A stretch of 64,000 bases of DNA from Halobaculum sp. CBA1158. Its GTDB lineage: Archaea > Halobacteriota > Halobacteria > Halobacteriales > Haloferacaceae. The stretch is taken from positions 62,001 through 126,000 of the forward strand of contig NZ_CP090373.1 of assembly GCF_021431925.1 (NCBI RefSeq), read 5' to 3'. Numbering within the stretch: position 1 is the first letter of the stretch; each line of letters starts with the position of its first letter. This document shows positions 7,524-35,633 of the stretch, one piece after another. The position numbers and the translations under genes were made by a program. The notes under the pieces are model-generated. The model saw only the letters and a program-made list of their open reading frames with translations, was not told the origin of the DNA and did no database searches.

Positions 7524-8195
7524 TTACTGATGAATACTGTCCAGCGCTCGTCGGGTCATAGCTCCATCGACATTTAGATATTGACGTGCGGTCGTGATGT
7601 CCTCCCACCCGAACATTGCTCGGAGTGCGGGAAGATCCAAGCCTCTTCCTGCATGGTACGACGCTGCTGTGGCACGTAACCCATGTAATGAGGTTGCGTC
7701 GTTAGACAATTCTGGGGACAATTTCAGGGCCGTTTCTAGACGTCGCTGTAAGGTCGAGAACGAATACGGCCAGCCACTATGTTCGTCGAGTAACAATTCA
7801 ACCCCGACTCGAACCCGATACGAAAAGTGGTACGGAACTGTTCGAGATGCGGCTTCTGTTTTCGGGAGCCAATAACGCTCAGCAAAGCTCTGAAAATCCG
7901 TATTGGGATTGTGATCTAGCCGTTGTTTTACCGCCTGCCGGCAGTATCCACAGATGCCACCATCCCGTCCCTTCGTACAGTTTTCCTGTGTGGGAATCTG
8001 GATCATCTGCCGCTCTAGGTCAACCCACGATTTCGACAAGTGCGTTGTTTCTCCTGGTCTAAGTCCAAGACGGCCTCCAAGGAGAATGGCCGCTCGTGTT
8101 TCGAGTCTCTGTTGTGTATCATCTATTCGCCCAGCACCTTCTAACAGTAGTTCGAACTCGCGTTCGCTAAGGGCCCTCTCTCGTGTTGCTACCAT
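7524..8195 (-). CDS. Small tyrosine recombinase (catalytic domain only), candidate pglX invertase
   Basis: About 223 residues from the ATG at 8195, which has a TATA-like ATTATC about 27 bases upstream; an ATG at 8219 would add eight residues. Visible tyrosine-recombinase residues are an Arg in GLRPGET, the HGLR box, a Trp in GWEDITTARQ, and the Tyr in RQYLN. A cysteine group (ENC, GICGYC) forms a possible zinc knuckle, which I associate with haloarchaeal integrases. The N-terminal core-binding domain of ordinary integrases (about 300-400 residues) is absent. It ends 49 bp after the silent cassette and points toward it. Position and type make it the natural candidate for flipping the pglX segment; that role is inferred. 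Confidence 0.8.
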   Translation of the reverse strand: MVATRERALSEREFELLLEGAGRIDDTQQRLETRAAILLGGRLGLRPGETTHLSKSWVDLERQMIQIPTQENCTKGRDGGICGYCRQAVKQRLDHNPNTDFQSFAERYWLPKTEAASRTVPYHFSYRVRVGVELLLDEHSGWPYSFSTLQRRLETALKLSPELSNDATSLHGLRATAASYHAGRGLDLPALRAMFGWEDITTARQYLNVDGAMTRRALDSIHQ

Positions 8196-8297
8196 ATCCA
8201 TCGCTGTCTGTCGATACAAAGATAATCCGCTTCTTCTTCGAGTGGCAAGGTGAATCGGTTCACAGCCGCCAGAATTGCCGTCTGATATGACAGGAAG

Positions 8298-8303
8298 TAC
8301 TTA
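8298..8303 (+). promoter_or_regulatory. TATA-like element for the gene at 8327
   Basis: TACTTA centred about 27 bases before the ATG at 8327, the spacing of leaderless haloarchaeal transcripts. This favours 8327 over the ATG at 8303. Confidence 0.5.
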
Positions 8304-8326
8304 TGGGTGCCCTCCGGACGAAGCGT

Positions 8327-8893
8327 ATGGGACTCTTTGAGACCTTATTTAGCTCATCCACTGGGGACACTGACCCTCAGGCACAGCAACCGAGTCAGCA
8401 CGAAATCTTCCCCGAGGACAAGTACAATGTCGCATACGCTGTAGCCGCTCGGCGTGAAGAAATTCGGGCGTTAGAACACCTTCTAGAAGCGGATCAGACC
8501 TCACCTACCGCCTTGGAGGCTGAGCCTTTCCTTCAGGATATAATCGAAGAGATGGAGCGGGATCGGGAATACTCCCTCCGCCTTCGCACCTCTGGGGAGG
8601 AGCTCGTCGACGATATCCGTGAACTCATAGAGCATTGGGACAATCAGGTAGATGAGCAGATAGGGACGATTTGGTGGCCTATCGGAGCAGATACGAGGTT
8701 CAGGTTGTACCTCCATTATCTGGAACTCCGTGCTGACGCGGAGGATGACCAATTTTCGTTCCCGGAGTCTGCTGGACAGGTTCACACTCTCGTCCAGCGT
8801 GGTCTCAGTGCAATAGAAGATGATGACGACTCGAAGCTCGCTGTAGTCCACAAGCGAGACATTCCTTGGGAAGAACCAGTTGAGGACAGCTGA
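8327..8893 (+). CDS. Hypothetical acidic, mostly helical protein
   Basis: A 188-residue soluble protein starting MGLFETLF. I do not recognise a family. Most of it is charged helix with many Glu/Asp residues, and a tryptophan pair lies in GTIWWPIGAD near residue 116. There is no signal peptide or membrane segment. The ATG at 8303 is in frame, but the TATA-like TACTTA at 8298-8303 would then overlap the coding region. It is the first of three small co-oriented genes downstream of the recombinase. Length and codon use suggest a real gene; no function is proposed. Confidence 0.6.
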   Translation: MGLFETLFSSSTGDTDPQAQQPSQHEIFPEDKYNVAYAVAARREEIRALEHLLEADQTSPTALEAEPFLQDIIEEMERDREYSLRLRTSGEELVDDIRELIEHWDNQVDEQIGTIWWPIGADTRFRLYLHYLELRADAEDDQFSFPESAGQVHTLVQRGLSAIEDDDDSKLAVVHKRDIPWEEPVEDS

Positions 8894-8950
8894 TCCAGTT
8901 CTCTCCTTCTCAAAGAGACCGATTAATTGTATCCAGTATCAAACCCAGTT

Positions 8951-9385
8951 ATGGTAGAAATCTCAGACTCCCTGTGTTCGCTGTTCACTGCGAAAATTAA
9001 GGAGGAGGATGGAACTTTCGTCATCGAGATTCCTCCGAGTGAGATCAAGCACGGGGCGCTGACCGGTGATGAAACGTATCGCATCGCTCTCCTTGATTCC
9101 TCCTCCGAAGCTGAATCAACATCCCCACAGGCCCCACGGAATCCCGCCTCTCAGGGGAGCACGAGCCATGATTCATCTGGTCCTCCTGTTGATGAGGGAG
9201 AAGTGCGCGACGTGACAATCGAAACCGTCGGTGATCAAGGAGACGGTATTGCGAAAGTCGAACGGGGGTACGTCGTGATCGTCCCCGGCGCTCAGCCCGG
9301 TGACGAGCCAACAGTCGAAATCGAACAAGTTCAGGAGAACGTCGCGTTTGCGAGCATTGTCGATAGCGATCCGCGAGCACTCTAA
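8951..9385 (+). CDS. TRAM-domain protein
   Basis: A 144-residue protein. The last 55 residues (from RDVTIETVGDQGDG through YVVIVPGAQPGDE) fit a TRAM domain, a small beta-barrel that binds RNA. Small TRAM proteins are numerous in haloarchaea and are thought to act as RNA chaperones. The N-terminal 45 residues are a separate small module, linked by a Ser/Pro-rich stretch. A TTAATT element about 27 bases before the ATG at 8951 favours this start over the upstream in-frame ATG at 8927. The RNA-binding role is family knowledge; the target is unknown. Confidence 0.75.
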   Translation: MVEISDSLCSLFTAKIKEEDGTFVIEIPPSEIKHGALTGDETYRIALLDSSSEAESTSPQAPRNPASQGSTSHDSSGPPVDEGEVRDVTIETVGDQGDGIAKVERGYVVIVPGAQPGDEPTVEIEQVQENVAFASIVDSDPRAL

Positions 9386-9504
9386 CCTGTTGTCCCTTCT
9401 GTGGATCGGTCTTCTTCTCGGTAAACCATCGGTGTGAGAAGGCTCCGTTCGCGTTTGTCTGATGGAGGTGGTTCTGAAAGTCACGTTTTCTTCACGCGCT
9501 CGCG

Positions 9505-9810
9505 ATGGCACAACCCTCCAAAGCCGAAATACAATCTATGACAAAGGAACCGATTGAGGTACTCGACGACCTGGCCAACCAGGTCGCCGATGAGTTCGAG
9601 GCGTATAGACAGCCGGACGAATTCAAGGATGTCTCGCTCGTGATTGAGAACAGCGACGAGGAGCGTCCGACGCTAATCGTCCACGTCGATAGGGAGGATG
9701 CGGAGGCTCTTGCCGACCGCATTGATGAGTTCCTCCGCGAGCACGGTGCTCGTACTGAACGGGAACGACACTCAGCTACGGATGTCCGTGTGTTAGCGAC
9801 GGTCGACTGA
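9505..9810 (+). CDS. Small conserved-looking haloarchaeal protein, unknown function
   Basis: A 101-residue acidic protein. It has an N-terminal helical part (EVLDDLANQVADEFEAYR), a beta-strand pair (SLVIENS, TLIVHVDRED) and a helix (AEALADRIDEFLREHG). I see no metal site, signal peptide or membrane segment. The fold pattern resembles a small alpha-beta binding domain but cannot be assigned. An internal ATG at 9538 is an alternative start, giving 90 residues. It stands alone between the TRAM gene and the convergent nucleotidyltransferase. Confidence 0.55.
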   Translation: MAQPSKAEIQSMTKEPIEVLDDLANQVADEFEAYRQPDEFKDVSLVIENSDEERPTLIVHVDREDAEALADRIDEFLREHGARTERERHSATDVRVLATVD

Positions 9811-9894
9811 CAACCACCCCTCCAATTTTTGACCGACTGCAAGCACCGCTGAAGGGCCTTATCTTCACTTCTGGTCAAGGGAGTCCCGACCGAT

Positions 9895-10590
9895 TCAGCT
9901 CAGGTGGTCAATCTGTGCAGACAGATACTCTTGGAGAGCGGTGACCGTTTCTTCTGAGACAGCTGAGGCCCCGAAGTCACTCCGAAATCCATGCTTGAGT
10001 TCGTCGCTCTCCAAGATATCCAGTCCACGCTCAAGTTGCTCCCGTAGGGCATTGTCGTCCCCTCGCCGCAGATGGGGCGTGACAGCGTTGAGGTCGATCT
10101 CTTCAGCCACTGCCAGGACGTCTCGGAGGTCCGTTTCTCGGCCACTGTGGAGCTTTGCCGCCACGAGGACGGCCCCATCGATGACTCTGGCCGTCGTCGT
10201 CACTGTGCCCCCGCTCACCTCCTGTTGGTGGCTGTGGTCGTACAGGTAGTCGAACGACCACTGTGCCTCCGTCTGGCGACACCCGAGTCCGTTTACCAGG
10301 AGATCGAAGCCGATCGGCTGCTGCGGCGTGAGCCGCTTCTCGTACTCGATTACTTCGGTGTCGTAGAACCATTTCTTGGCGTGACTGTCCGTTTCCTCGA
10401 ATTTCTGCTGTTCGAGGAACTCGACGAAGTCAGCCTTGGAGTCCGGCGCGACGACGATATCGAGGTCCGTGGAGAAGCGAGCATTGAACGCTGAGACAGC
10501 GTAGCCGCCAACAAGAACGTACTCGTGACCCTGTTGGGTGAGCTCCTCGAGCAGTTCGATGAGCGCGTCACTTCGGTTGTTGAAGCTCAT
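9895..10590 (-). CDS. Nucleotidyltransferase-fold protein of a two-gene toxin-antitoxin-like pair
   Basis: A 231-residue protein with the minimal nucleotidyltransferase signature: a glycine pair in LVGGYAVSAF followed by the acidic pair in STDLDIVV. A second strand (IGFDLLVNG) could supply a third carboxylate. This pattern matches DUF6036/AbiEii-like nucleotidyltransferases. Its ATG (10588-10590) overlaps the stop of the upstream winged-helix gene, so the two are translationally coupled. That order, regulator first and transferase second, is typical of AbiE-like type IV pairs, where the transferase is the toxin. Toxicity is inferred; the fold is well supported. The frame is open further upstream, but that part is out-of-frame overlap with the neighbouring gene. 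Confidence 0.75.
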   Translation of the reverse strand: MSFNNRSDALIELLEELTQQGHEYVLVGGYAVSAFNARFSTDLDIVVAPDSKADFVEFLEQQKFEETDSHAKKWFYDTEVIEYEKRLTPQQPIGFDLLVNGLGCRQTEAQWSFDYLYDHSHQQEVSGGTVTTTARVIDGAVLVAAKLHSGRETDLRDVLAVAEEIDLNAVTPHLRRGDDNALREQLERGLDILESDELKHGFRSDFGASAVSEETVTALQEYLSAQIDHLS

Positions 10591-25871: not shown

Positions 25872-26069
25872 ATGACGACGACCATCAGCGTTGAGGGGAT
25901 GACCTGTGGCCACTGTGAACAGACAGTAGAAGAAACGCTTCAAGAGATACCTGGTGTGACCGACGCGACCGCAGACCGGGAAGCTGAACAGGCGAAGGTG
26001 GATGGTGACGCCGACGCCTCGGTCCTCGTTGAGGCTGTCGAAGACGCCGGTTACACTGCCCACGCCTAA
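25872..26069 (+). CDS. CopZ-like heavy-metal-binding chaperone
   Basis: A 65-residue single HMA domain with the metal motif GMTCGHCEQ (Cys at 12 and 15) and the usual ferredoxin-like ending EAVEDAGYTAHA. Such proteins carry Cu(I) to P1B ATPases. It lies between the divergent Lrp-TRASH regulator and the ATPase at 26219, with a 149-bp gap to the latter, so it may have its own transcript. The start is fixed by domain length; SD-like GGAGGAGG lies 16 bases upstream. Confidence 0.9.
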   Translation: MTTTISVEGMTCGHCEQTVEETLQEIPGVTDATADREAEQAKVDGDADASVLVEAVEDAGYTAHA

Positions 26070-26218: not shown

Positions 26219-28501
26219 ATGGACGACCACAAAGATACAGCTGAGAATTCCCAGGGCGGAGAGGACCAGCAGGACACCACCAGTCACCAGCACGAACACG
26301 GCGACCTCGATGAAGCGGTCGCGGAATCTGACGAGGAAGGGGTAGAACAGGAGCTACTGGAGGACGAGGCTCACCACACTGCGGCAGGTGAGATGGCGTC
26401 CCACGAGCAGCACGAGCACGCCGGCCACGAGGGCGACGGCCACGGCCACGATTCCCACGAGGGACACGGCGAGGGCCATGGCGGGATGCACGAAGGCCAC
26501 GAGCAGATGTTCCGGCGGCGCTTCTTCGTCTCGACGCTCCTGTCGATTCCCGTCCTCCTGTACAGCGAAATGCTACAGGAGTGGCTCGGGTTCTCCGTCC
26601 CGGCATTCCCGGGGAGCGAATGGATCAACCCCGTCTTCGCGGTCATCGTCTTCGCGTATGGTGGGGTCCCGTTCCTCAAGATGGCAGTGCCGGAGCTGAA
26701 AGATCGGTCGCCGGGGATGATGACGTTGATCTCGATGGCCATCTCGGTCGCGTTCGTCTACAGTCTCGCGAGCGTAGTATTCCCGACGCAGTCGGCGTTC
26801 TTCTGGGAGCTCGTGACGTTGATCGACATCATGCTGCTGGGGCACTGGATCGAGATGCGGTCGGTGCGCCGTGCCTCGAGCGCGGTCGACGAGCTGGCGA
26901 AGCTGATGCCCGACACCGCAGAGCGAATTACTGATGATGGAGACACCGAGGAAGTCCCCGTCAGTGAGCTCTCGGAAGGCGACCTCGTGCTCGTCCGGCC
27001 GGGCGCGAGTGTCCCTGCTGACGGCACCGTCGAGGAGGGCGATTCGGACGTCAACGAGTCGATGATCACGGGCGAGTCCAAGCCCGTCTCGAAGGAGCCC
27101 GGTGACGAGGTCATCGGCGGCACCATCAACGGCGATGGTAGTCTCCGCGTCCGTGTTGGCGCGACGGGTGAGGAGACGACACTCGCGGGCATCATGCGTC
27201 TCGTCGAGGAAGCCCAGCAGAGCAAGTCCAAGACGCAGGTACTGGCCGACCGGGCGGCCGGCTGGCTGTTCTACGTCGCGCTCGGGGCGGCAGTCGTGAC
27301 GGGGATTGCGTGGACCGTCGCGGTCTCGTTCGACGTGACCGTCATCGAACGCGTCGTCACGGTACTCGTCATCGCCTGCCCACACGCTCTCGGGCTCGCC
27401 ATCCCGCTGGTCGTCGCCATCAACACGTCGCTCGCCGCTCAGAACGGGATGCTCGTTCGCGACCGCATCGCGATGGAGGATGCGCGGAACCTTGACGCGA
27501 TCATCTTCGACAAGACAGGGACGCTCACCGAGGGCGAACACGGCGTCGTGGATATGGCGACCGTCAACGGCGTCGACGAGGACGACGCGCTCGGGCTGGC
27601 GGCAGCCGTCGAGAGCGACTCCGAGCACATGATCGCGCGAGCGATTCGCGAGGCCGCCGACGAGCGAGACCTAACTACTCCCGACGCGACCGCCTTCGAG
27701 GCGATCAAAGGCCGAGGGGTTCGCGCGAACGTCGACGGAAACGAGGTGTACGTCGGTGGGCCGAACCTGTTGACCCAGCTCGATAGCGAGATCCCCGACC
27801 ATCTCCAGCGCTTCGCTGACGAGGCCGGACAGAACGCCCAGACAGTGGTGTATCTCGTTCGTGACGGAGAGCTAATTGCCGCCTTCGCGATGGCCGACGT
27901 GATCCGCGAGGAGAGTTTCCGCGTCGTCGACGCGCTCCACGATCTGGGTATCGAGGTGGCGATGCTGACGGGGGACTCCCAGGACGTCGCCAACGCCGTC
28001 GCCGACGAACTGGGCATCGGCACGGTGTTCGCGGAGGTCCTCCCCGAAGACAAAGACGAGAAAGTCCAGGAGCTCCAGGACCAGGGGAAGCTGGTGGGGA
28101 TGGTCGGCGACGGCGTGAACGATGCGCCGGCGCTGACGCGGGCCGACGTCGGCATCGCGATCGGGAGCGGCACCGACGTCGCAGTCCAGTCGGCCGACGT
28201 CATCCTCGTCCAGAACAACCCCATGGACGTCGTTCGGCTGGTGAAGCTCAGTAAGGCGAGCTATCGGAAGATGCAGGAGAACATCGTCTGGGCCGCCGGG
28301 TACAACGTGTTCGCGATTCCGCTCGCAGCAGGCGTCTTGGCACCGATCGGGATTCTGCTCTCCCCCGCTGTGGGTGCGCTCCTGATGTCGCTGAGTACGG
28401 TGATCGTCGCGATCAACGCCCAGCTGCTCCGCCGCGTGGACCTGTCCATCCCCGAGCTTCCAGGCGGGACACCAGCGACTGACGCACAACCTGCAGACTG
28501 A
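26219..28501 (+). CDS. P1B-type copper ATPase with CPH motif (CopB-like)
   Basis: A 760-residue protein. Residues 1-100 are soluble, very acidic and His-rich ([18 protein letters not shown]), replacing an HMA domain. Eight membrane helices follow, with TGES near 283, the transport motif CPH at about 387-389, the phosphorylated Asp of DKTGT at 431, SEHMIARAI as a variant of the HP box, and GDGVND near 629. CPH defines the P1B-3 (CopB) group, which exports Cu and Ag. The variant SEHM in place of SEHP is notable. The gene follows the CopZ-like gene and is probably controlled by the Lrp-TRASH regulator. Confidence 0.9.
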
Positions 28502-28822: not shown

Positions 28823-29710
28823 TCAGAACATTTCTCTGAAGTCCCGTTCGATGAGTCCGTCCTCCAGATACGTGATGAACTCTTGTTTCGTTGGTCCTTG
28901 ACAGTCGAGCAGATCGTCCCGCTCTGCACGTTTGAGGACTGCCTGTGCGAAGTCCGTACAGTGGGATTCATGCTGCTCAGCGTACTTCGAAAGGGCATCT
29001 CGCCAATGCATATCCAGCTCGAACTCGGCTAATCGAATTTGGATCCCGTCTTTCCGTTCGACGAGGTTGACGTCTAGGTCTTCGAGCTGCTTGAAACGGA
29101 GGTTGTTCCGGCGGACCGTGATGAGCCGTTTGGAATCCACGATGTAGGGATCGACCCACTCTCGCCAGGTATCGTCGTCGACGTGCGTTCGTGGCATCGA
29201 AAAATTCGAATCTACACTCTCAATACAGAATTGTAGCATCGCGATGCCAGTTCGATGATTCGCATTCGGGAGGGAATGTCGGAGAATCAAATTCGACATC
29301 ACTTCGCCGGCGACTTCAGGAACTGATGCTCCCCAGGATACGTGATCAAGTGCCTGTTGTATCTTCTGCGGTTCGAACTCCTTGTAAAGCCGAAACTCAT
29401 CCTCATCTCGAACATCGACAGCAGCTTCGAGCAATTCCACTAACCGGAAGGCGACAACTTGCCCAGGACGAGGGAGGTCACGAATACGGTCGCTCAGCCA
29501 TTCCTGATCGAAGTCAATATCTTGGGCTGATTCGATCTCTGATTCGCCTTCGTAGAGGACATAGACCGGTGTCTCGAAGGGGTATCCGATGAGTTTCGTC
29601 GACTCATCGGATTGCTCTCGCTGAGACCGGATTTCTGCTACCGATGCCGAACTATATTTGAGTGAGAAATTCTCGGCCTGTGGGTGATGATAGAAGACGA
29701 GCCGAGCCAT
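28823..29710 (-). CDS. Fic/Doc-like protein
   Basis: A 295-residue protein from the ATG at 29710, which has a CTTTAC element about 27 bases upstream; the frame extends further but without support. Near residue 150 lies HSLPNANHRTG, matching the Fic/Doc signature H-x-F/L-x-x-A/G-N-x-R. The helix before it (VAGEVMSNLILR) fits the fold. Fic enzymes transfer AMP or other groups to proteins; Doc phosphorylates EF-Tu. The usual inhibitory motif is not obvious. It is convergent with the tiny gene at 28718, which could be a partner. Family call moderate, activity unknown. Confidence 0.6.
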   Translation of the reverse strand: MARLVFYHHPQAENFSLKYSSASVAEIRSQREQSDESTKLIGYPFETPVYVLYEGESEIESAQDIDFDQEWLSDRIRDLPRPGQVVAFRLVELLEAAVDVRDEDEFRLYKEFEPQKIQQALDHVSWGASVPEVAGEVMSNLILRHSLPNANHRTGIAMLQFCIESVDSNFSMPRTHVDDDTWREWVDPYIVDSKRLITVRRNNLRFKQLEDLDVNLVERKDGIQIRLAEFELDMHWRDALSKYAEQHESHCTDFAQAVLKRAERDDLLDCQGPTKQEFITYLEDGLIERDFREMF

Positions 29711-29763
29711 TTCAATGTGTATTCGTGCGAAGTGGGTAAAGCAGTCCCGCTTGTATGTTGATT

Positions 29764-30060
29764 CTACGACTGGGTGGGTGCGTTCACGTCTTCTAAATAC
29801 TGGCTTTCCCACTCACGTCGCGCCTCGATCTCCCGCACTCCGCGTTGTGTGACCGTGTACACGTTCGTCCGTTTGTCGAGTTCACCTTTCTCCAGGAGGC
29901 CTTTGCCGACGAGGTCGTCGAGGTTTGGATAGAGCCGTCCATGGTTGATCTCTTGTTCGTAGTAGTCGTCAAGTTCGGCCTTTACTGCGAGCCCGTGTGG
30001 TTCCTCGAGCCCGGCGATCACGTACAAGATGTCCCGCTGGAACCCAGTTAGATCGTGCAT
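29764..30060 (-). CDS. PadR-family transcriptional regulator
   Basis: A 98-residue winged-helix protein of the PadR type: FQRDILYVIAGLEEPHGLAV, then INHGRLYPNLDDLVGKGLLE and VYTVTQRGVREIEAR. PadR proteins are usually dimeric repressors of transport or stress genes. It is divergent from the CPW-type ATPase, with about 210 bp between them, and may control that gene or the Fic-like gene downstream. The small size without a long C-terminal helix is common in haloarchaea. Confidence 0.85.
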   Translation of the reverse strand: MHDLTGFQRDILYVIAGLEEPHGLAVKAELDDYYEQEINHGRLYPNLDDLVGKGLLEKGELDKRTNVYTVTQRGVREIEARREWESQYLEDVNAPTQS

Positions 30061-30269: not shown

Positions 30270-32795
30270 GTGTCTCCATCTCAATCGCTATCTTCCACAT
30301 GCGCGCTTTGTGGGGGGACTGTCCCCGATGATCGAGACGTAGCTGAAGACGACATCGTCTTCTGCTGTGATGGATGTCGAAACGTCCATCGAGTGCTCGG
30401 TAGCGATGGAGATCACAGTCGGATGGCTCCGACGGACGATATTATACACAAGCCTGAGTCTGGAACGCACGAGCGAGAGGCAGCCATGCATCGATCAGGA
30501 GCTGAGGACCGTGTCTTCCTCCAAGTCGACGGGATGCACTGTGCGACGTGTGAGGGATTCCTCGAATCGGTCGCCAAGGATTGCGAAGGTGTCGTCGATG
30601 CGGCAGCAAGCTACGTTACCGAGACGGTCTGTATCACATACGACCCTGACCGCATCTCGATGGACACTCTCTGTGATACCCTGAGTACACTCGGCTATTC
30701 GGCAACCCTCCGTGCTGGAGGGAGTGATGACGCACCGACTGTAATCGGACAGTCACGGCGGTCTGACGAGCCGAATGAACGAGGCATTGACGAGGTGCTG
30801 GGATTCCGTTACGCTGCTGGCGTCATTTTCGGGACGTTCATGCTCCTCCCGTATGCGGTCCTCCTCTATCCGGCGCAGCTCTCGTCGTTCTTTGGTGAGG
30901 GGACACTCGATATGTACGCGAGTGCGTCCGGGATCGGCGGTGGAGATGGCCTGTTGATCCTGCCGCTCTTTCTCGTTCTGACGGGTGTCGTCCTCGTGTT
31001 CACCGGCCTGCCGCTGTTACAGGGTGCGTATGTCAGTCTGAAGATGCGACAGCCGAACACGGACCTGCTTGTCGCACTCACCGTTGTGAGTGCCTACGTG
31101 TACAGTACAATCGCCTTTCTCCTCGGTCGGCTCGACGTCTTCTACGACCTCACGATTGTGGTTGCCGCGAGTGTGGTGGCCGCCATCTTCTATGAATCAC
31201 TGAGCAAGCAGCGAGCGATGGATCGCCTGACGAATCTTACTATCTCTCACGTCACCGAAGCCAGGCGGTACGGCGCCAATGGGACGACGACGGTCGATGT
31301 TCATGACCTGAAAGCCGGGGAGCGGGTCCTCGTCCGTGAGGGCGAACGAATCCCGGTCGATGGAGTTCTCGCTGAGGGTGAGTGTACGGTCGACGAAGCG
31401 ATCGTGACAGGCGAGTCGCTCCCGGTATCGAAGCAAGCGGGAGACGAGGTCGTCGGCGGGGCAGTCGTCACAAATGGTGCTGCTGTTCTCACAGTGAGCG
31501 ATAGGACAACCAGTAGTATCGATCGCCTCATCACCTCTGTCTGGAATCTCCAGAGTGGGGATCACGGCGTCCAGCGGCAGGCCGATCGGCTCGCGTCAGT
31601 CATCATCCCGGTCGTCGTCGGTGGGGCGGTACTCGCCGGAGTGGGGTCGCTTCTGGTGGGGACGGGGATTCCCGTCGCCGTCCTGACGGCGCTGGTGGTT
31701 CTCTTGGTTGGGTGTCCGTGGGCACTTGGCCTGGCAACCCCGCTCTCGGTGGCAACCAGTATCGAACAAGCGGTAGAGCGGGGCATCGTCATCTTCGACG
31801 AGACAGTCTTCGAGCGCCTTCGGAACGTTGACGTCGTCGTCTTTGACAAAACGGGGACTCTCACGACCGGTCAGATGGATGTCCTCGAGGCGGATGCACC
31901 GTCGGATCTGCTTGAAATCGTCGCGGCCCTCGAACAGCGAGCATCCCACCCAGCGGCCGACGCAATCGTGAATACGTTTGCACACGGGAATCAGGAGGAC
32001 GATCGCTCGAGAGCTGATGGGGGTGTTACCGATGGAAGTGAGCACGAGCACGCAGAGCACATCACCGAGTTCACGAGCCACACGACTGGCGTCGAGGGAG
32101 TCGTCGAGGACACGCGCGTTCTCGTCGGAAACCTCGATCTCTTCGCGGAACTCGGGTGGTCGGTGAGCGAGCAGATCGAGACGCGTGCCGCAGAGGCACG
32201 AACGGCCGGTCACCTTCCGGTCGTCGTCGGTCGTGACGGCCATGCAGAGGGCGTCATCGTCGTGGGCGATGAACCCCGCCCGAGCTGGGATGACACACTC
32301 ACGCAACTGAGTGACCGTGACATCGAGATCGTCGTTCTGACCGGTGATGGCGAGGCTGCTACTGACTTTCTCGACAGCCATCCTGCCGTCGATCACGTGT
32401 TCGCGGGGGTCCCGCCGGCAGGCAAGACCGCGACGATCCGGCGGTTACAGTCTCGTGGGCAGGTTACGATGGTCGGTGATGGGACGAACGATGCCCCGGC
32501 CCTAGCGACAGCAGATCTGGGAATCTCCCTCGGTGGGGGGACAGCACTCGCGTCCGATGCCGCGGATATTTCTATCGTCGATGATGACCTCGCGGCGGTG
32601 GAGACGACGTTCGACCTCGCAGATGCAGCTCGTCGGCGTGTCAGACAGAACAACGGGCTGGCGCTGCTCTACAATGGAGTCACGATGCCCCTCGCAGCGA
32701 CGGGGTTGCTGAATCCGGTGTTCGCGATGGGTGCGGTCGTGGCGACCGGCGGTCTCCTCGCGGCGAACTCGTTCCGAGACCTGCTTCACGAGTAG
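30270..32795 (+). CDS. P1B-type heavy-metal ATPase with N-terminal Cys domain, HMA domain and unusual CPW motif
   Basis: An 841-residue protein. Residues 11-40 carry a cysteine cluster (CALCGG, FCCDGC) like the domain at the head of CcoI/FixI-type ATPases. An HMA domain has CATC at 91-94. Eight helices follow with TGES, the motif CPW (482-484) where CPC is usual, DKTGT at 526, SHPAADAI and GDGTND. CcoI-type pumps supply copper to cytochrome oxidase. Loss of the second cysteine of CPC should change metal choice or affinity. The start is GTG; no ATG fits the domain. The PadR gene is divergent. Confidence 0.85.
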   Translation: MSPSQSLSSTCALCGGTVPDDRDVAEDDIVFCCDGCRNVHRVLGSDGDHSRMAPTDDIIHKPESGTHEREAAMHRSGAEDRVFLQVDGMHCATCEGFLESVAKDCEGVVDAAASYVTETVCITYDPDRISMDTLCDTLSTLGYSATLRAGGSDDAPTVIGQSRRSDEPNERGIDEVLGFRYAAGVIFGTFMLLPYAVLLYPAQLSSFFGEGTLDMYASASGIGGGDGLLILPLFLVLTGVVLVFTGLPLLQGAYVSLKMRQPNTDLLVALTVVSAYVYSTIAFLLGRLDVFYDLTIVVAASVVAAIFYESLSKQRAMDRLTNLTISHVTEARRYGANGTTTVDVHDLKAGERVLVREGERIPVDGVLAEGECTVDEAIVTGESLPVSKQAGDEVVGGAVVTNGAAVLTVSDRTTSSIDRLITSVWNLQSGDHGVQRQADRLASVIIPVVVGGAVLAGVGSLLVGTGIPVAVLTALVVLLVGCPWALGLATPLSVATSIEQAVERGIVIFDETVFERLRNVDVVVFDKTGTLTTGQMDVLEADAPSDLLEIVAALEQRASHPAADAIVNTFAHGNQEDDRSRADGGVTDGSEHEHAEHITEFTSHTTGVEGVVEDTRVLVGNLDLFAELGWSVSEQIETRAAEARTAGHLPVVVGRDGHAEGVIVVGDEPRPSWDDTLTQLSDRDIEIVVLTGDGEAATDFLDSHPAVDHVFAGVPPAGKTATIRRLQSRGQVTMVGDGTNDAPALATADLGISLGGGTALASDAADISIVDDDLAAVETTFDLADAARRRVRQNNGLALLYNGVTMPLAATGLLNPVFAMGAVVATGGLLAANSFRDLLHE

Positions 32796-33096: not shown

Positions 33097-34308
33097 TCAG
33101 TCGGCGGGGATGATGGCGGCCGATTGATCGGGCTGTCGGGCTGCTTGGACCGAGTAGATCAGGCTCCCGGTGAAGAGGACGAAGCTTCCTACGATGAATA
33201 CTGCACTGAGCGGCGAGGCCGAATCGACGAACACCCAGTAGAGGGGGGCGGCAATCGATGGTCCGGCAGCAAGTACCGCGATCTTCGCGACGAGTGGCCC
33301 ACAGCACCCACAGGTACACGTCCCGACGATTGCAGCACTCCCGGCGGTTCCTTCGGTCATGCCGGCTCGTTCCTCGACACGCCAGTGACGGGCAATGAGA
33401 GCGGCGTTCAACCCGATGAGTGCGCTTAGCATTCCGACAACGATGACCTGACCGGGTGACACGGCCAGGAAGAACGGGATATGTATGAACGGGAGATGCG
33501 GAATCGCGATTTCGAGCGTCGGCCACGATACTAGCTGATAGATTGCGGGCAGAACGACGACTGTCACTTCCTCAGGGAAGCCCTCCTCGGGGAACAACGA
33601 GAGGTACCCCGTTATCGAGACGAAAAAGAGAGCTAATACGACACCGACGCCGATTCCGAAGCGACGCGCAACCGGATCACGCATGACTGCGCGAATGACA
33701 CTCCCTGCGTCCTTCCAGACGACATACCCGACCAGGAGTGGCGTGCCGAGGACGATGGCGTACCCGAGTGGATGCGTATCGCTTGCCAGTCCTGGAAGGA
33801 GGTAAGGGTACGAAATCCACAATCCCATGAGGATGCCGAGGAACGTGTACCGTGGTCGCGATGGCCAGCGGAGCCACCCAACGACGAAGCTCGCGACCAT
33901 GATTCCCAAGCCACTCAGCAGGGCCAGTGGCTGATACCACGCCCGGGGGAACGGCATCGAACTCGCAGTATATGTCGGATCTGGGGAGAGCCCTTCGAAG
34001 AGTACGGCTCCAAGCGCAGTAATAGCGATACCGGCGAACACGCCGTACAGAGCGGTTGTCGCTGTGATCCGATCTGTCCGTTTGAGAAGGATGAATCCAC
34101 CGAGAATAACGGCACCAACGAAAGCAATAATTATACCGTGTCCTTGCGAGAGTCCACCGCTTCCGGCTGTACCGTGGGCGGACGCGACGGGAACCTGAGT
34201 GAGCGTACCAATCGCGGCGAGAAGTATAGAGAGTGGCCGAAAAGACCCGATTCGAGAGGTCTGTCCACGGGAGGGGTCCCCACGTGGTTGACGCTCTTCT
34301 GGTGACAT
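33097..34308 (-). CDS. Polytopic membrane protein with a CTCGCCGP loop
   Basis: A 403-residue protein with an N-terminal signal-like helix ending SAHG and about ten further membrane helices. Near the C-terminus a cysteine-rich turn (GTCTCGCCGP) directly precedes a helix. This is well placed to bind a thiophilic metal or to form disulfides at the membrane face. I do not recognise the family. The context (ATPases, halocyanin) favours a copper-related role. Its start is followed by a basic stretch before the signal helix, so the true start could be a later codon. Confidence 0.65.
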   Translation of the reverse strand: MSPEERQPRGDPSRGQTSRIGSFRPLSILLAAIGTLTQVPVASAHGTAGSGGLSQGHGIIIAFVGAVILGGFILLKRTDRITATTALYGVFAGIAITALGAVLFEGLSPDPTYTASSMPFPRAWYQPLALLSGLGIMVASFVVGWLRWPSRPRYTFLGILMGLWISYPYLLPGLASDTHPLGYAIVLGTPLLVGYVVWKDAGSVIRAVMRDPVARRFGIGVGVVLALFFVSITGYLSLFPEEGFPEEVTVVVLPAIYQLVSWPTLEIAIPHLPFIHIPFFLAVSPGQVIVVGMLSALIGLNAALIARHWRVEERAGMTEGTAGSAAIVGTCTCGCCGPLVAKIAVLAAGPSIAAPLYWVFVDSASPLSAVFIVGSFVLFTGSLIYSVQAARQPDQSAAIIPAD

Positions 34309-35069: not shown

Positions 35070-35633
35070 ATGGAGCGTCGACAGATTCTCAAGACGGCTG
35101 GAATTCTCGCTACAGGTGGCGTAACTGGTCTCGCCGGATGCAGTAGTTCGGGGAACGGAGACGGTGGCGGTGAGCCGACCACGACTGAAACGCAGGAGAC
35201 AGCTGGTGGGTCAGGAGACTCGAATACCGTCATGATGGTCACCGAAGGGAGCGAGTATTATTTCGATCCCATCGGCCTGTTCATCGAATCTGGGGAAACT
35301 GTGACATTCGAAATCCAGAGCGGGAGCCACTCGGCAACCGCCTACAAAGAGGGAACGAGTTCAGCCTCGGTAAATCGGATTCCCGAAAGCGCAGAAACGT
35401 TCAATAGCGAAACGCTGAGTGAACAGGGCGCAACGTACGAGCACACGTTCGAGACCACAGGGACGTACGATTACTTCTGTATCCCGCACAAGACCCTAGG
35501 GATGGTCGGCCGGATCGTCGTCGGCGAACCCGGCGGTCCCGCCGAGGGGAGTATGCCGCCGGACGGAGACGTTCCCGAAAGCCAGACCATCGTCGATCAA
35601 GGCAGCGTCTCGTACAGCTCGTTCTCCGGATAG
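35070..35633 (+). CDS. Halocyanin-like blue copper lipoprotein
   Basis: A 187-residue protein with a Tat-type signal and lipobox (RRQILKTAG, then GLAGC), a Gly/Thr linker, and a plastocyanin-fold domain. Type 1 copper ligands are His 87 in SGSHSA, Cys 136 and His 139 in YFCIPH, and Met 144 in LGMVG. Halocyanins carry electrons at the outer face of the membrane. A CCTTAT element about 27 bases before the ATG supports the start. It stands alone just after the tRNA, in line with the redox genes of this island. Confidence 0.9.
   Translation: MERRQILKTAGILATGGVTGLAGCSSSGNGDGGGEPTTTETQETAGGSGDSNTVMMVTEGSEYYFDPIGLFIESGETVTFEIQSGSHSATAYKEGTSSASVNRIPESAETFNSETLSEQGATYEHTFETTGTYDYFCIPHKTLGMVGRIVVGEPGGPAEGSMPPDGDVPESQTIVDQGSVSYSSFSG

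What the first reader, a model, noticed from the sequence alone, without database searches (positions are those of the whole stretch)
30270..32795. P-type ATPase with CPW instead of CPC
The membrane metal motif reads C-P-W (residues 482-484), while all catalytic motifs, the HMA CATC and the N-terminal cysteine cluster are intact. CPC, CPH, SPC and TPC are the usual classes; CPW would leave a single thiolate in the site. The pump may have a new metal specificity or act in slow delivery to an oxidase, as CcoI does.
Basis: seen in the sequence. Interest (0 to 1): 0.65.

Follow-up and report, generated by a model that had tools for sequence, protein, structure and literature searches.

The report
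Pump family with dismantled copper site
The odd Cys-Pro-Trp motif is real and marks a widespread family of ATP-driven membrane pumps in salt-loving archaea that descends from copper pumps, has lost nearly every residue that holds copper in the membrane, and has kept its engine plus one never-changing tryptophan, so it probably moves or does something other than pump copper.

Summary
CPW is really there (residues 482-484, TGT CCG TGG, 31713-31721) in an intact 841-aa P1B-type ATPase. It is no mutation or read error. The Trp is present in all 107 full-length relatives of this clade (77 after 95% dereplication), which form one haloarchaeal clade nested inside CPC-type, CcoI-like copper ATPases. 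The Cys is not conserved: the motif is mostly SPW, also CPW, TPW, APW, GPW and NPW. So it is not a single-thiolate metal site.

The clade has dropped the other known copper ligands too: the entry Met (T264), both CPC cysteines in most members, and MxxSS in M6. These positions drift on the tree (12-22 changes at 482, 823, 826 and 827), while Trp484, Tyr181, Phe190, Cys372 and Asn802 change 0 times and the phosphorylation motifs are intact. dN/dS is about 0.13-0.17. Members tested fail NCBI's copper-ATPase cut-off; their CPC cousins pass.

Best reading: a neofunctionalised pump that uses the P-type cycle on a cargo not held by sulfur. A copper-responsive, non-pumping ATPase is the main rival. 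The substrate is unknown. The window copy lies in a plasmid-type copper island and keeps cytosolic copper-binding cysteines. I found no description of this group in the open-access papers searched.

The parts
30270..32795 (+). P1B-type ATPase of the haloarchaeal xPW clade, 841 aa
   Evidence: Pfam E1-E2_ATPase, Hydrolase, HMA; TIGR01525 410.8 bits vs cut-off 346; Foldseek LpCopA 4bbj TMt 0.80
30300..30377 (+). N-terminal CxxC...FCCxGC zinc-ribbon/TRASH-like cluster (residues 11-36)
   Evidence: weak Pfam PF12156 ATPase-cat_bd E 0.0025, below cut-off
30519..30698 (+). HMA domain, MHCATC (residues 84-143)
   Evidence: Pfam HMA 40.6 bits
30810..30839 (+). MA helix positions Tyr181, Phe187, Phe190: invariant or nearly so in the W clade, not in CPC cousins
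31059..31061 (+). Thr264 at the position of the copper-entry Met (AfCopA M158)
   Evidence: Alignment; T in 69/77 vs M in 38/39 CPC cousins; role of M158 in PMC9433437
31383..31385 (+). Cys372 in the actuator domain, 77/77 in the W clade, mostly Ala/Gly in cousins
31713..31721 (+). CPW motif at the M4 kink (residues 482-484)
   Evidence: residues 482-485 non-helical in the AF2 model
31842..31859 (+). Phosphorylation site FDKTGT (residues 525-530)
32670..32675 (+). Tyr801-Asn802 of M5, retained
   Evidence: Y 73/77, N 77/77
32736..32750 (+). M6 VVATG in place of MxxSS (residues 823-827)
26219..28501 (+). CopB-type ATPase with CPH motif (copper-island neighbour)
25872..26069 (+). CopZ-like HMA metallochaperone
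   Evidence: Pfam HMA 74.7 bits
25141..25740 (-). AsnC/Lrp regulator with HVO_1752-type TRASH domain
   Evidence: PF24273 86.1 bits
29764..30060 (-). PadR-like regulator divergent from the CPW gene
   Evidence: PF03551 54.3 bits; conserved in 9 W loci
33097..34308 (-). Multi-helix membrane protein with invariant CxCGCCGP; frequent neighbour, family unknown
   Evidence: 16 of 43 W loci; no Pfam/NCBIfam match; alignments A2/A3
35070..35633 (+). Halocyanin/plastocyanin-type copper protein
   Evidence: PF00127 52.5 bits
40322..41476 (-). Multicopper oxidase
   Evidence: PF07731 113.6 bits

Best explanation
The gene encodes a member of a single-origin, haloarchaeal P-type ATPase family that arose from CcoI-like CPC copper ATPases. 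SHOWN by sequence: the membrane copper ligands are gone (second CPC Cys always, first CPC Cys and entry Met in most, MxxSS), Trp484 is fixed at the M4 kink, aromatic residues are fixed in helix MA, and all phosphorylation/dephosphorylation motifs are kept under purifying selection. INFERRED: Trp484 fills the former copper site, so the protein no longer moves Cu+ by the known sulfur relay; it still runs the E1-E2 phosphorylation cycle, triggered by a different cargo that is not held by thiols, along a path lined by Trp484, the MA aromatics and Tyr801-Asn802. In the window's copper-island subclade the HMA and N-terminal cysteines are kept, so cytosolic copper may regulate it. The cargo is not known.
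For: Trp484 is invariant in 77 dereplicated members with 0 changes on the tree, while 482, 823, 826, 827 and 189 change 12, 12, 20, 22 and 15 times. One clade, SH-aLRT 100, nested in CPC relatives, trait columns masked. Mapping to AfCopA M158, C380, C382, M711, S714, S715 (alignment, M6 mapped through haloarchaeal CopA; PMC9433437, where Ala at CPC, YN and MxxSS impaired Cu+ binding). Eight of eight W members score below the Cu-ATPase cut-off (TIGR01511, 302-371 vs 397), six of six CPC cousins above it (419-444). dN/dS median 0.126 outside the window subclade and about 0.16 within it. Trp484 aligns with the M4 residue that is Glu in Ca2+ pumps and Ile in lipid flippases (PMC4937031), a position that changes with the cargo class.
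Against: No substrate, transport or ATPase data. The window subclade keeps C482 and the HMA/N-terminal cysteines and sits among copper genes, which fits some copper role. M6 is weakly conserved in the clade, which is odd if it lines a cargo path. W-clade neighbourhoods differ between lineages and name no cargo. The AF2 model was returned without coordinates, so that Trp484 fills the site is not shown.
Confidence: 0.45

Rival explanations
1. Transport-dead copper-responsive ATPase: the cycle is used to regulate or assemble other proteins (sensor, chaperone release, buffering) and no cargo crosses the membrane.
For: Ligand positions and most of M6 drift as if unselected. Cytosolic cysteine sites persist in the copper-island subclade and the HMA fold is kept throughout. 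The locus has a PadR gene and copper genes next door.
Against: P-type phosphorylation normally needs cargo binding, and new invariant residues were fixed inside the membrane domain (W484, Y181, F190), which suggests a membrane function. Most members also lost the first HMA Cys (S in 56/77).
Confidence: 0.25
2. It is still a Cu+/Ag+ pump with a weaker or rearranged site (N802, Y801, E309, D439, in the window also C482).
For: YN and the acidic entry residues are retained. Window-type members sit beside CopB, CopZ, a TRASH regulator, multicopper oxidase and halocyanin.
Against: Several sulfur/hydroxyl ligands are lost together and drift freely; the first CPC Cys is absent in 64/77. Ala mutants at CPC and MxxSS impair Cu+ binding in AfCopA (PMC9433437). 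All tested W members are below the Cu-ATPase cut-off.
Confidence: 0.18
3. CPW is a genuine new CPx metal site with one thiolate and a new metal specificity.
For: The window and 12 other dereplicated members have CPW.
Against: The Cys varies to S/T/A/G/N with 12 changes, while only the Trp, which is not a usual metal ligand, is constant.
Confidence: 0.06
4. Point mutation, decaying gene or read error.
For: TGC/TGT to TGG is one step.
Against: W in 107 sequences from many genomes, single origin, open frames, dN/dS about 0.13-0.17.
Confidence: 0.01

Closest known systems
Haloarchaeal CcoI-like P1B-1 ATPases (CPC, MxxSS)
   Same: Same architecture: N-terminal CxLC...FCCxGC, HMA, 8 TM, P-type core; about 42-52% identity; the W clade nests inside them.
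   Different: They keep C-P-C, the entry Met and MxxSS, pass the Cu-ATPase cut-off, and sit next to DsbD_2 (18/38) and COX1 (10/38) genes; W loci show 0/43 and 2/43.
Bacterial CcoI/FixI (CopA2 type)
   Same: Extra N-terminal Cys site before an HMA domain (PMC8475189).
   Different: CcoI keeps both transmembrane copper sites and drives Cu(I) efflux; the W clade keeps only the Tyr and Asn of them.
P1B-2, -3, -4 ATPases (CPC with TM7 Lys, CPH, SPC)
   Same: P1B fold and cycle.
   Different: None has Trp after the M4 proline; the CPC (Lys) and CPH pumps of the own genome are only about 28-34% identical.
P4 lipid flippases (PISL in M4)
   Same: The ion-ligand position after the conserved M4 proline is a bulky hydrophobic residue (PMC4937031).
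   Different: No homology beyond the P-type core; eukaryotic, 10 TM, partner subunit (own knowledge). An analogy only.

Membership tests
P1B-type (heavy-metal) ATPase fold | DKTGT, TGE, HP, GDGxND, 8 TM with MA/MB, HMA; TIGR01525 above cut-off | tested here: met
   410.8 vs 346.25 bits; motif columns invariant in 77 members; Foldseek ATP7B/CopA on top
P1B-1 Cu+/Ag+ ATPase | CPC in M4 | tested here: not met
   CPW; Trp in 77/77 of the clade
P1B-1 Cu+/Ag+ ATPase | MxxSS in M6 | tested here: not met
   VVATG in the window; V/A/L/T at 823 and G/A/C/T at 827 in the clade, Ser in 6/77 at 827
P1B-1 Cu+/Ag+ ATPase | YN in M5 | tested here: met
   Y 73/77, N 77/77
P1B-1 Cu+/Ag+ ATPase | TIGR01511 score above curated cut-off | tested here: not met
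   371 vs 397 for the window; 8/8 W members below, 6/6 CPC cousins above
P1B-1 Cu+/Ag+ ATPase | Cu+ transport | not testable with these tools
   needs an assay
CcoI/FixI (CopA2) oxidase-assembly ATPase | extra N-terminal Cys site plus HMA | tested here: met
CcoI/FixI (CopA2) oxidase-assembly ATPase | both transmembrane Cu sites | tested here: not met
   definition in PMC8475189
CcoI/FixI (CopA2) oxidase-assembly ATPase | gene linkage to oxidase or its assembly genes | tested here: not met
   DsbD_2 0/43, COX1 2/43 W loci
P1B-2 Zn/Cd ATPase | CPC with Lys in TM7 and DxG in TM8 | tested here: not met
   YN in M5, no DxG in M6; definition in PMC4932525
P1B-3 (CPH) and P1B-4 (SPC) | CPH or SPC in M4 | tested here: not met
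P1B-5 to P1B-7 | class-specific motifs of Smith et al. 2014 | not tested
   Paper not held; P1B-7 is listed only as substrate unknown in PMC7558416

The most novel reading that the evidence does not exclude
A copper ATPase lineage escaped metal transport altogether: replacing the M4 ligand by Trp and adding MA aromatics made a prokaryotic P1B-derived pump for a hydrophobic or organic cargo, much as Ile in place of the ion ligand marks the P4 flippases.
Probability: 0.15. Interest if true: 0.9.

Novelty: new variant of a known kind. Interest (0 to 1): 0.58.

Why it matters
P1B ATPases are assigned a metal from their M4-M6 ligands. This clade, present in roughly 30% of sampled haloarchaeal species (counted by eye), is annotated as heavy-metal or cation-translocating but lacks those ligands while keeping the catalytic machinery. 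It is a natural experiment in how a P-type pump changes or loses its cargo, and its annotation as a heavy-metal pump should be treated as unproven.

Tried and rejected
Obligate membrane partner (33097-34308): rejected, because it also occurs in genomes without the W type, near Zn-type ATPases and other genes; its AF2 model is poor (pLDDT 61) and Foldseek gave nothing better than E 1.1. W type as strict replacement of the CPC cousin: rejected, since many genomes hold both and one carries them in tandem, while the window genome lacks the cousin. Natrialbaceae neighbours (sulfatase, ATP-grasp, GNAT, propeller protein) and Halolamina peptide-ABC genes as a common pathway: rejected, lineage-specific. 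C482 tied to the HMA and N-terminal Cys: they co-occur often but are phylogenetically clustered, so not taken as proof. Relatives outside class Halobacteria: in 393 phylum genomes the listed hits outside the class are at most about 37% identical. No open-access paper found that describes a CPW/SPW group.

Full report
Observation. The ORF 30270-32795 (+) starts with GTG and encodes 841 aa. Residues 482-484 are C-P-W, codons TGT CCG TGG at 31713-31721. Pfam finds HMA, E1-E2 ATPase and HAD hydrolase. TGES, DKTGT, SHPAAD and GDGTNDAP are intact, as are HMA CATC and the N-terminal CxxC plus FCCDGC cluster.

Is W real and shared? One genome-collection scan gave 80 relatives, whole-genome searches gave more, and a plasmid search gave named relatives such as Haloarcula marismortui pNG600 at 91.5% DNA identity. 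Of 107 full-length sequences with Trp after the M4 proline (77 at under 95% identity), position 482 is S51, C13, T7, A4, G1, N1. Apart from these, all close relatives (over 40% identity) carry the canonical CPC; no intermediate was seen. Some loci of the first scan were picked by short window peptides, among them the patches around Cys372 and Thr264; the whole-genome set, found without those peptides, shows the same pattern.

Origin. A tree with the trait columns masked puts all W-type proteins in one clade (SH-aLRT 100) nested among haloarchaeal CPC-type ATPases that carry the same N-terminal cysteine domain. W is therefore most simply derived from CPC, once. In 393 genomes of the phylum, listed hits outside class Halobacteria are at most about 37% identical (their motifs were not read one by one). 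By eye, from the truncated table, roughly 85-90 of 292 haloarchaeal species carry a W-type gene.

What else changed. Between 52 W and 39 CPC proteins the diagnostic sites are: Met to Thr at 264, CPC lost, Met to Val/Ala/Leu at 823, Ser to Gly/Ala/Cys at 827, Met to small residues at 189, Met to Leu at 192, HMA Cys91 to Ser in most, N-terminal Cys33 to Ser in most, and M5 Trp797 to Leu. By the alignment, residues 264, 482, 484, 801 and 802 are AfCopA M158, C380, C382, Y682 and N683; 823, 826 and 827 correspond to M711, S714 and S715 through the haloarchaeal CopA. PMC9433437 names these as the entry and high-affinity copper ligands and reports that alanine at CPC, YN and MxxSS impairs Cu+ binding, although M158A did not lower ATPase activity in its liposome assay. 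The clade keeps Y801 (or Phe), N802, E309 and mostly D439, and gains invariant Tyr181 and Phe190 (Phe187 in 76/77) in MA and Cys372 in the actuator domain.

Constraint. On the tree, 484, 181, 190, 372 and 802 show 0 changes inside the clade; 482 shows 12, 823 12, 826 20, 827 22, 189 15, HMA 91 10. The old ligand positions behave as if released, the Trp as if essential. Median dN/dS is 0.126 for pairs outside the window subclade and about 0.16 inside it, so these are working genes. Eight of eight W proteins score 302-371 bits against the NCBI Cu-ATPase model (cut-off 397), six of six CPC cousins 419-444.

Structure. AlphaFold2 with 40 aligned relatives gives pLDDT 78 and an eight-helix P1B arrangement with residues 482-485 non-helical in the middle of M4. 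Foldseek ranks ATP7B and LpCopA first (4bbj, TMt 0.80).

Neighbourhood. CPC cousins lie beside a DsbD_2/SafE membrane protein in 18 of 38 loci and COX1 in 10 of 38, as expected of oxidase assembly; W loci show 0 and 2 of 43. W genes fall into two kinds of place: copper islands on plasmid-like contigs (the window; CopB, CopZ, TRASH regulator, halocyanin, multicopper oxidase, the CGCC membrane protein), and other sites, largely in Natrialbaceae and Halolamina, with lineage-specific neighbours. The window genome has COX1 genes but no CPC cousin.

Mechanism. Established biochemistry says a P-type ATPase is phosphorylated after cargo binds. Keeping the full catalytic set under purifying selection while the copper ligands drift points to a cycle run by something other than Cu+. 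I favour a pump for a cargo not held by sulfur (0.45); a copper-responsive ATPase that moves nothing is next (0.25); a residual copper pump is possible above all for the window subclade, which keeps C482 and the cytosolic cysteines (0.18). That Trp sits where flippases have Ile and Ca2+ pumps have Glu (PMC4937031) is an analogy, not membership.

Verdict. New variant of a known kind, with unknown cargo.

Noticed in passing
window 33097-34308 (-): Multi-helix protein with invariant CxCGCCGP motif, no Pfam or NCBIfam match, in 60 of 292 haloarchaeal genomes and near Cu- or Zn-type ATPases in several of those read; function unknown.
   Followed up: partly
L157 12001-14526 (pNG600): The RefSeq start of WP_004594578.1 lies about 51 codons downstream and cuts off the conserved N-terminal cysteine domain.
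   Followed up: no
L173 4641-7103 and 8154-10430: A CPC (canonical) and an SPW (W-type) ATPase lie in tandem on the same strand.
   Followed up: partly
window 28823-29812 (-) and 29764-30060 (-): A hypothetical protein and a PadR regulator are conserved upstream of the CPW gene in nine loci.
   Followed up: no
L017 around 8001-10492: The CPW gene copy in Halonotius terrestris is split into two frames (343 and 470 aa), perhaps a broken copy or an assembly error.
   Followed up: no
Natrialbaceae loci such as L026, L034, L038, L059: SPW genes follow a same-strand run of sulfatase, small protein, TM-propeller protein, GNAT and ATP-grasp genes, some touching the ATPase frame.
   Followed up: partly
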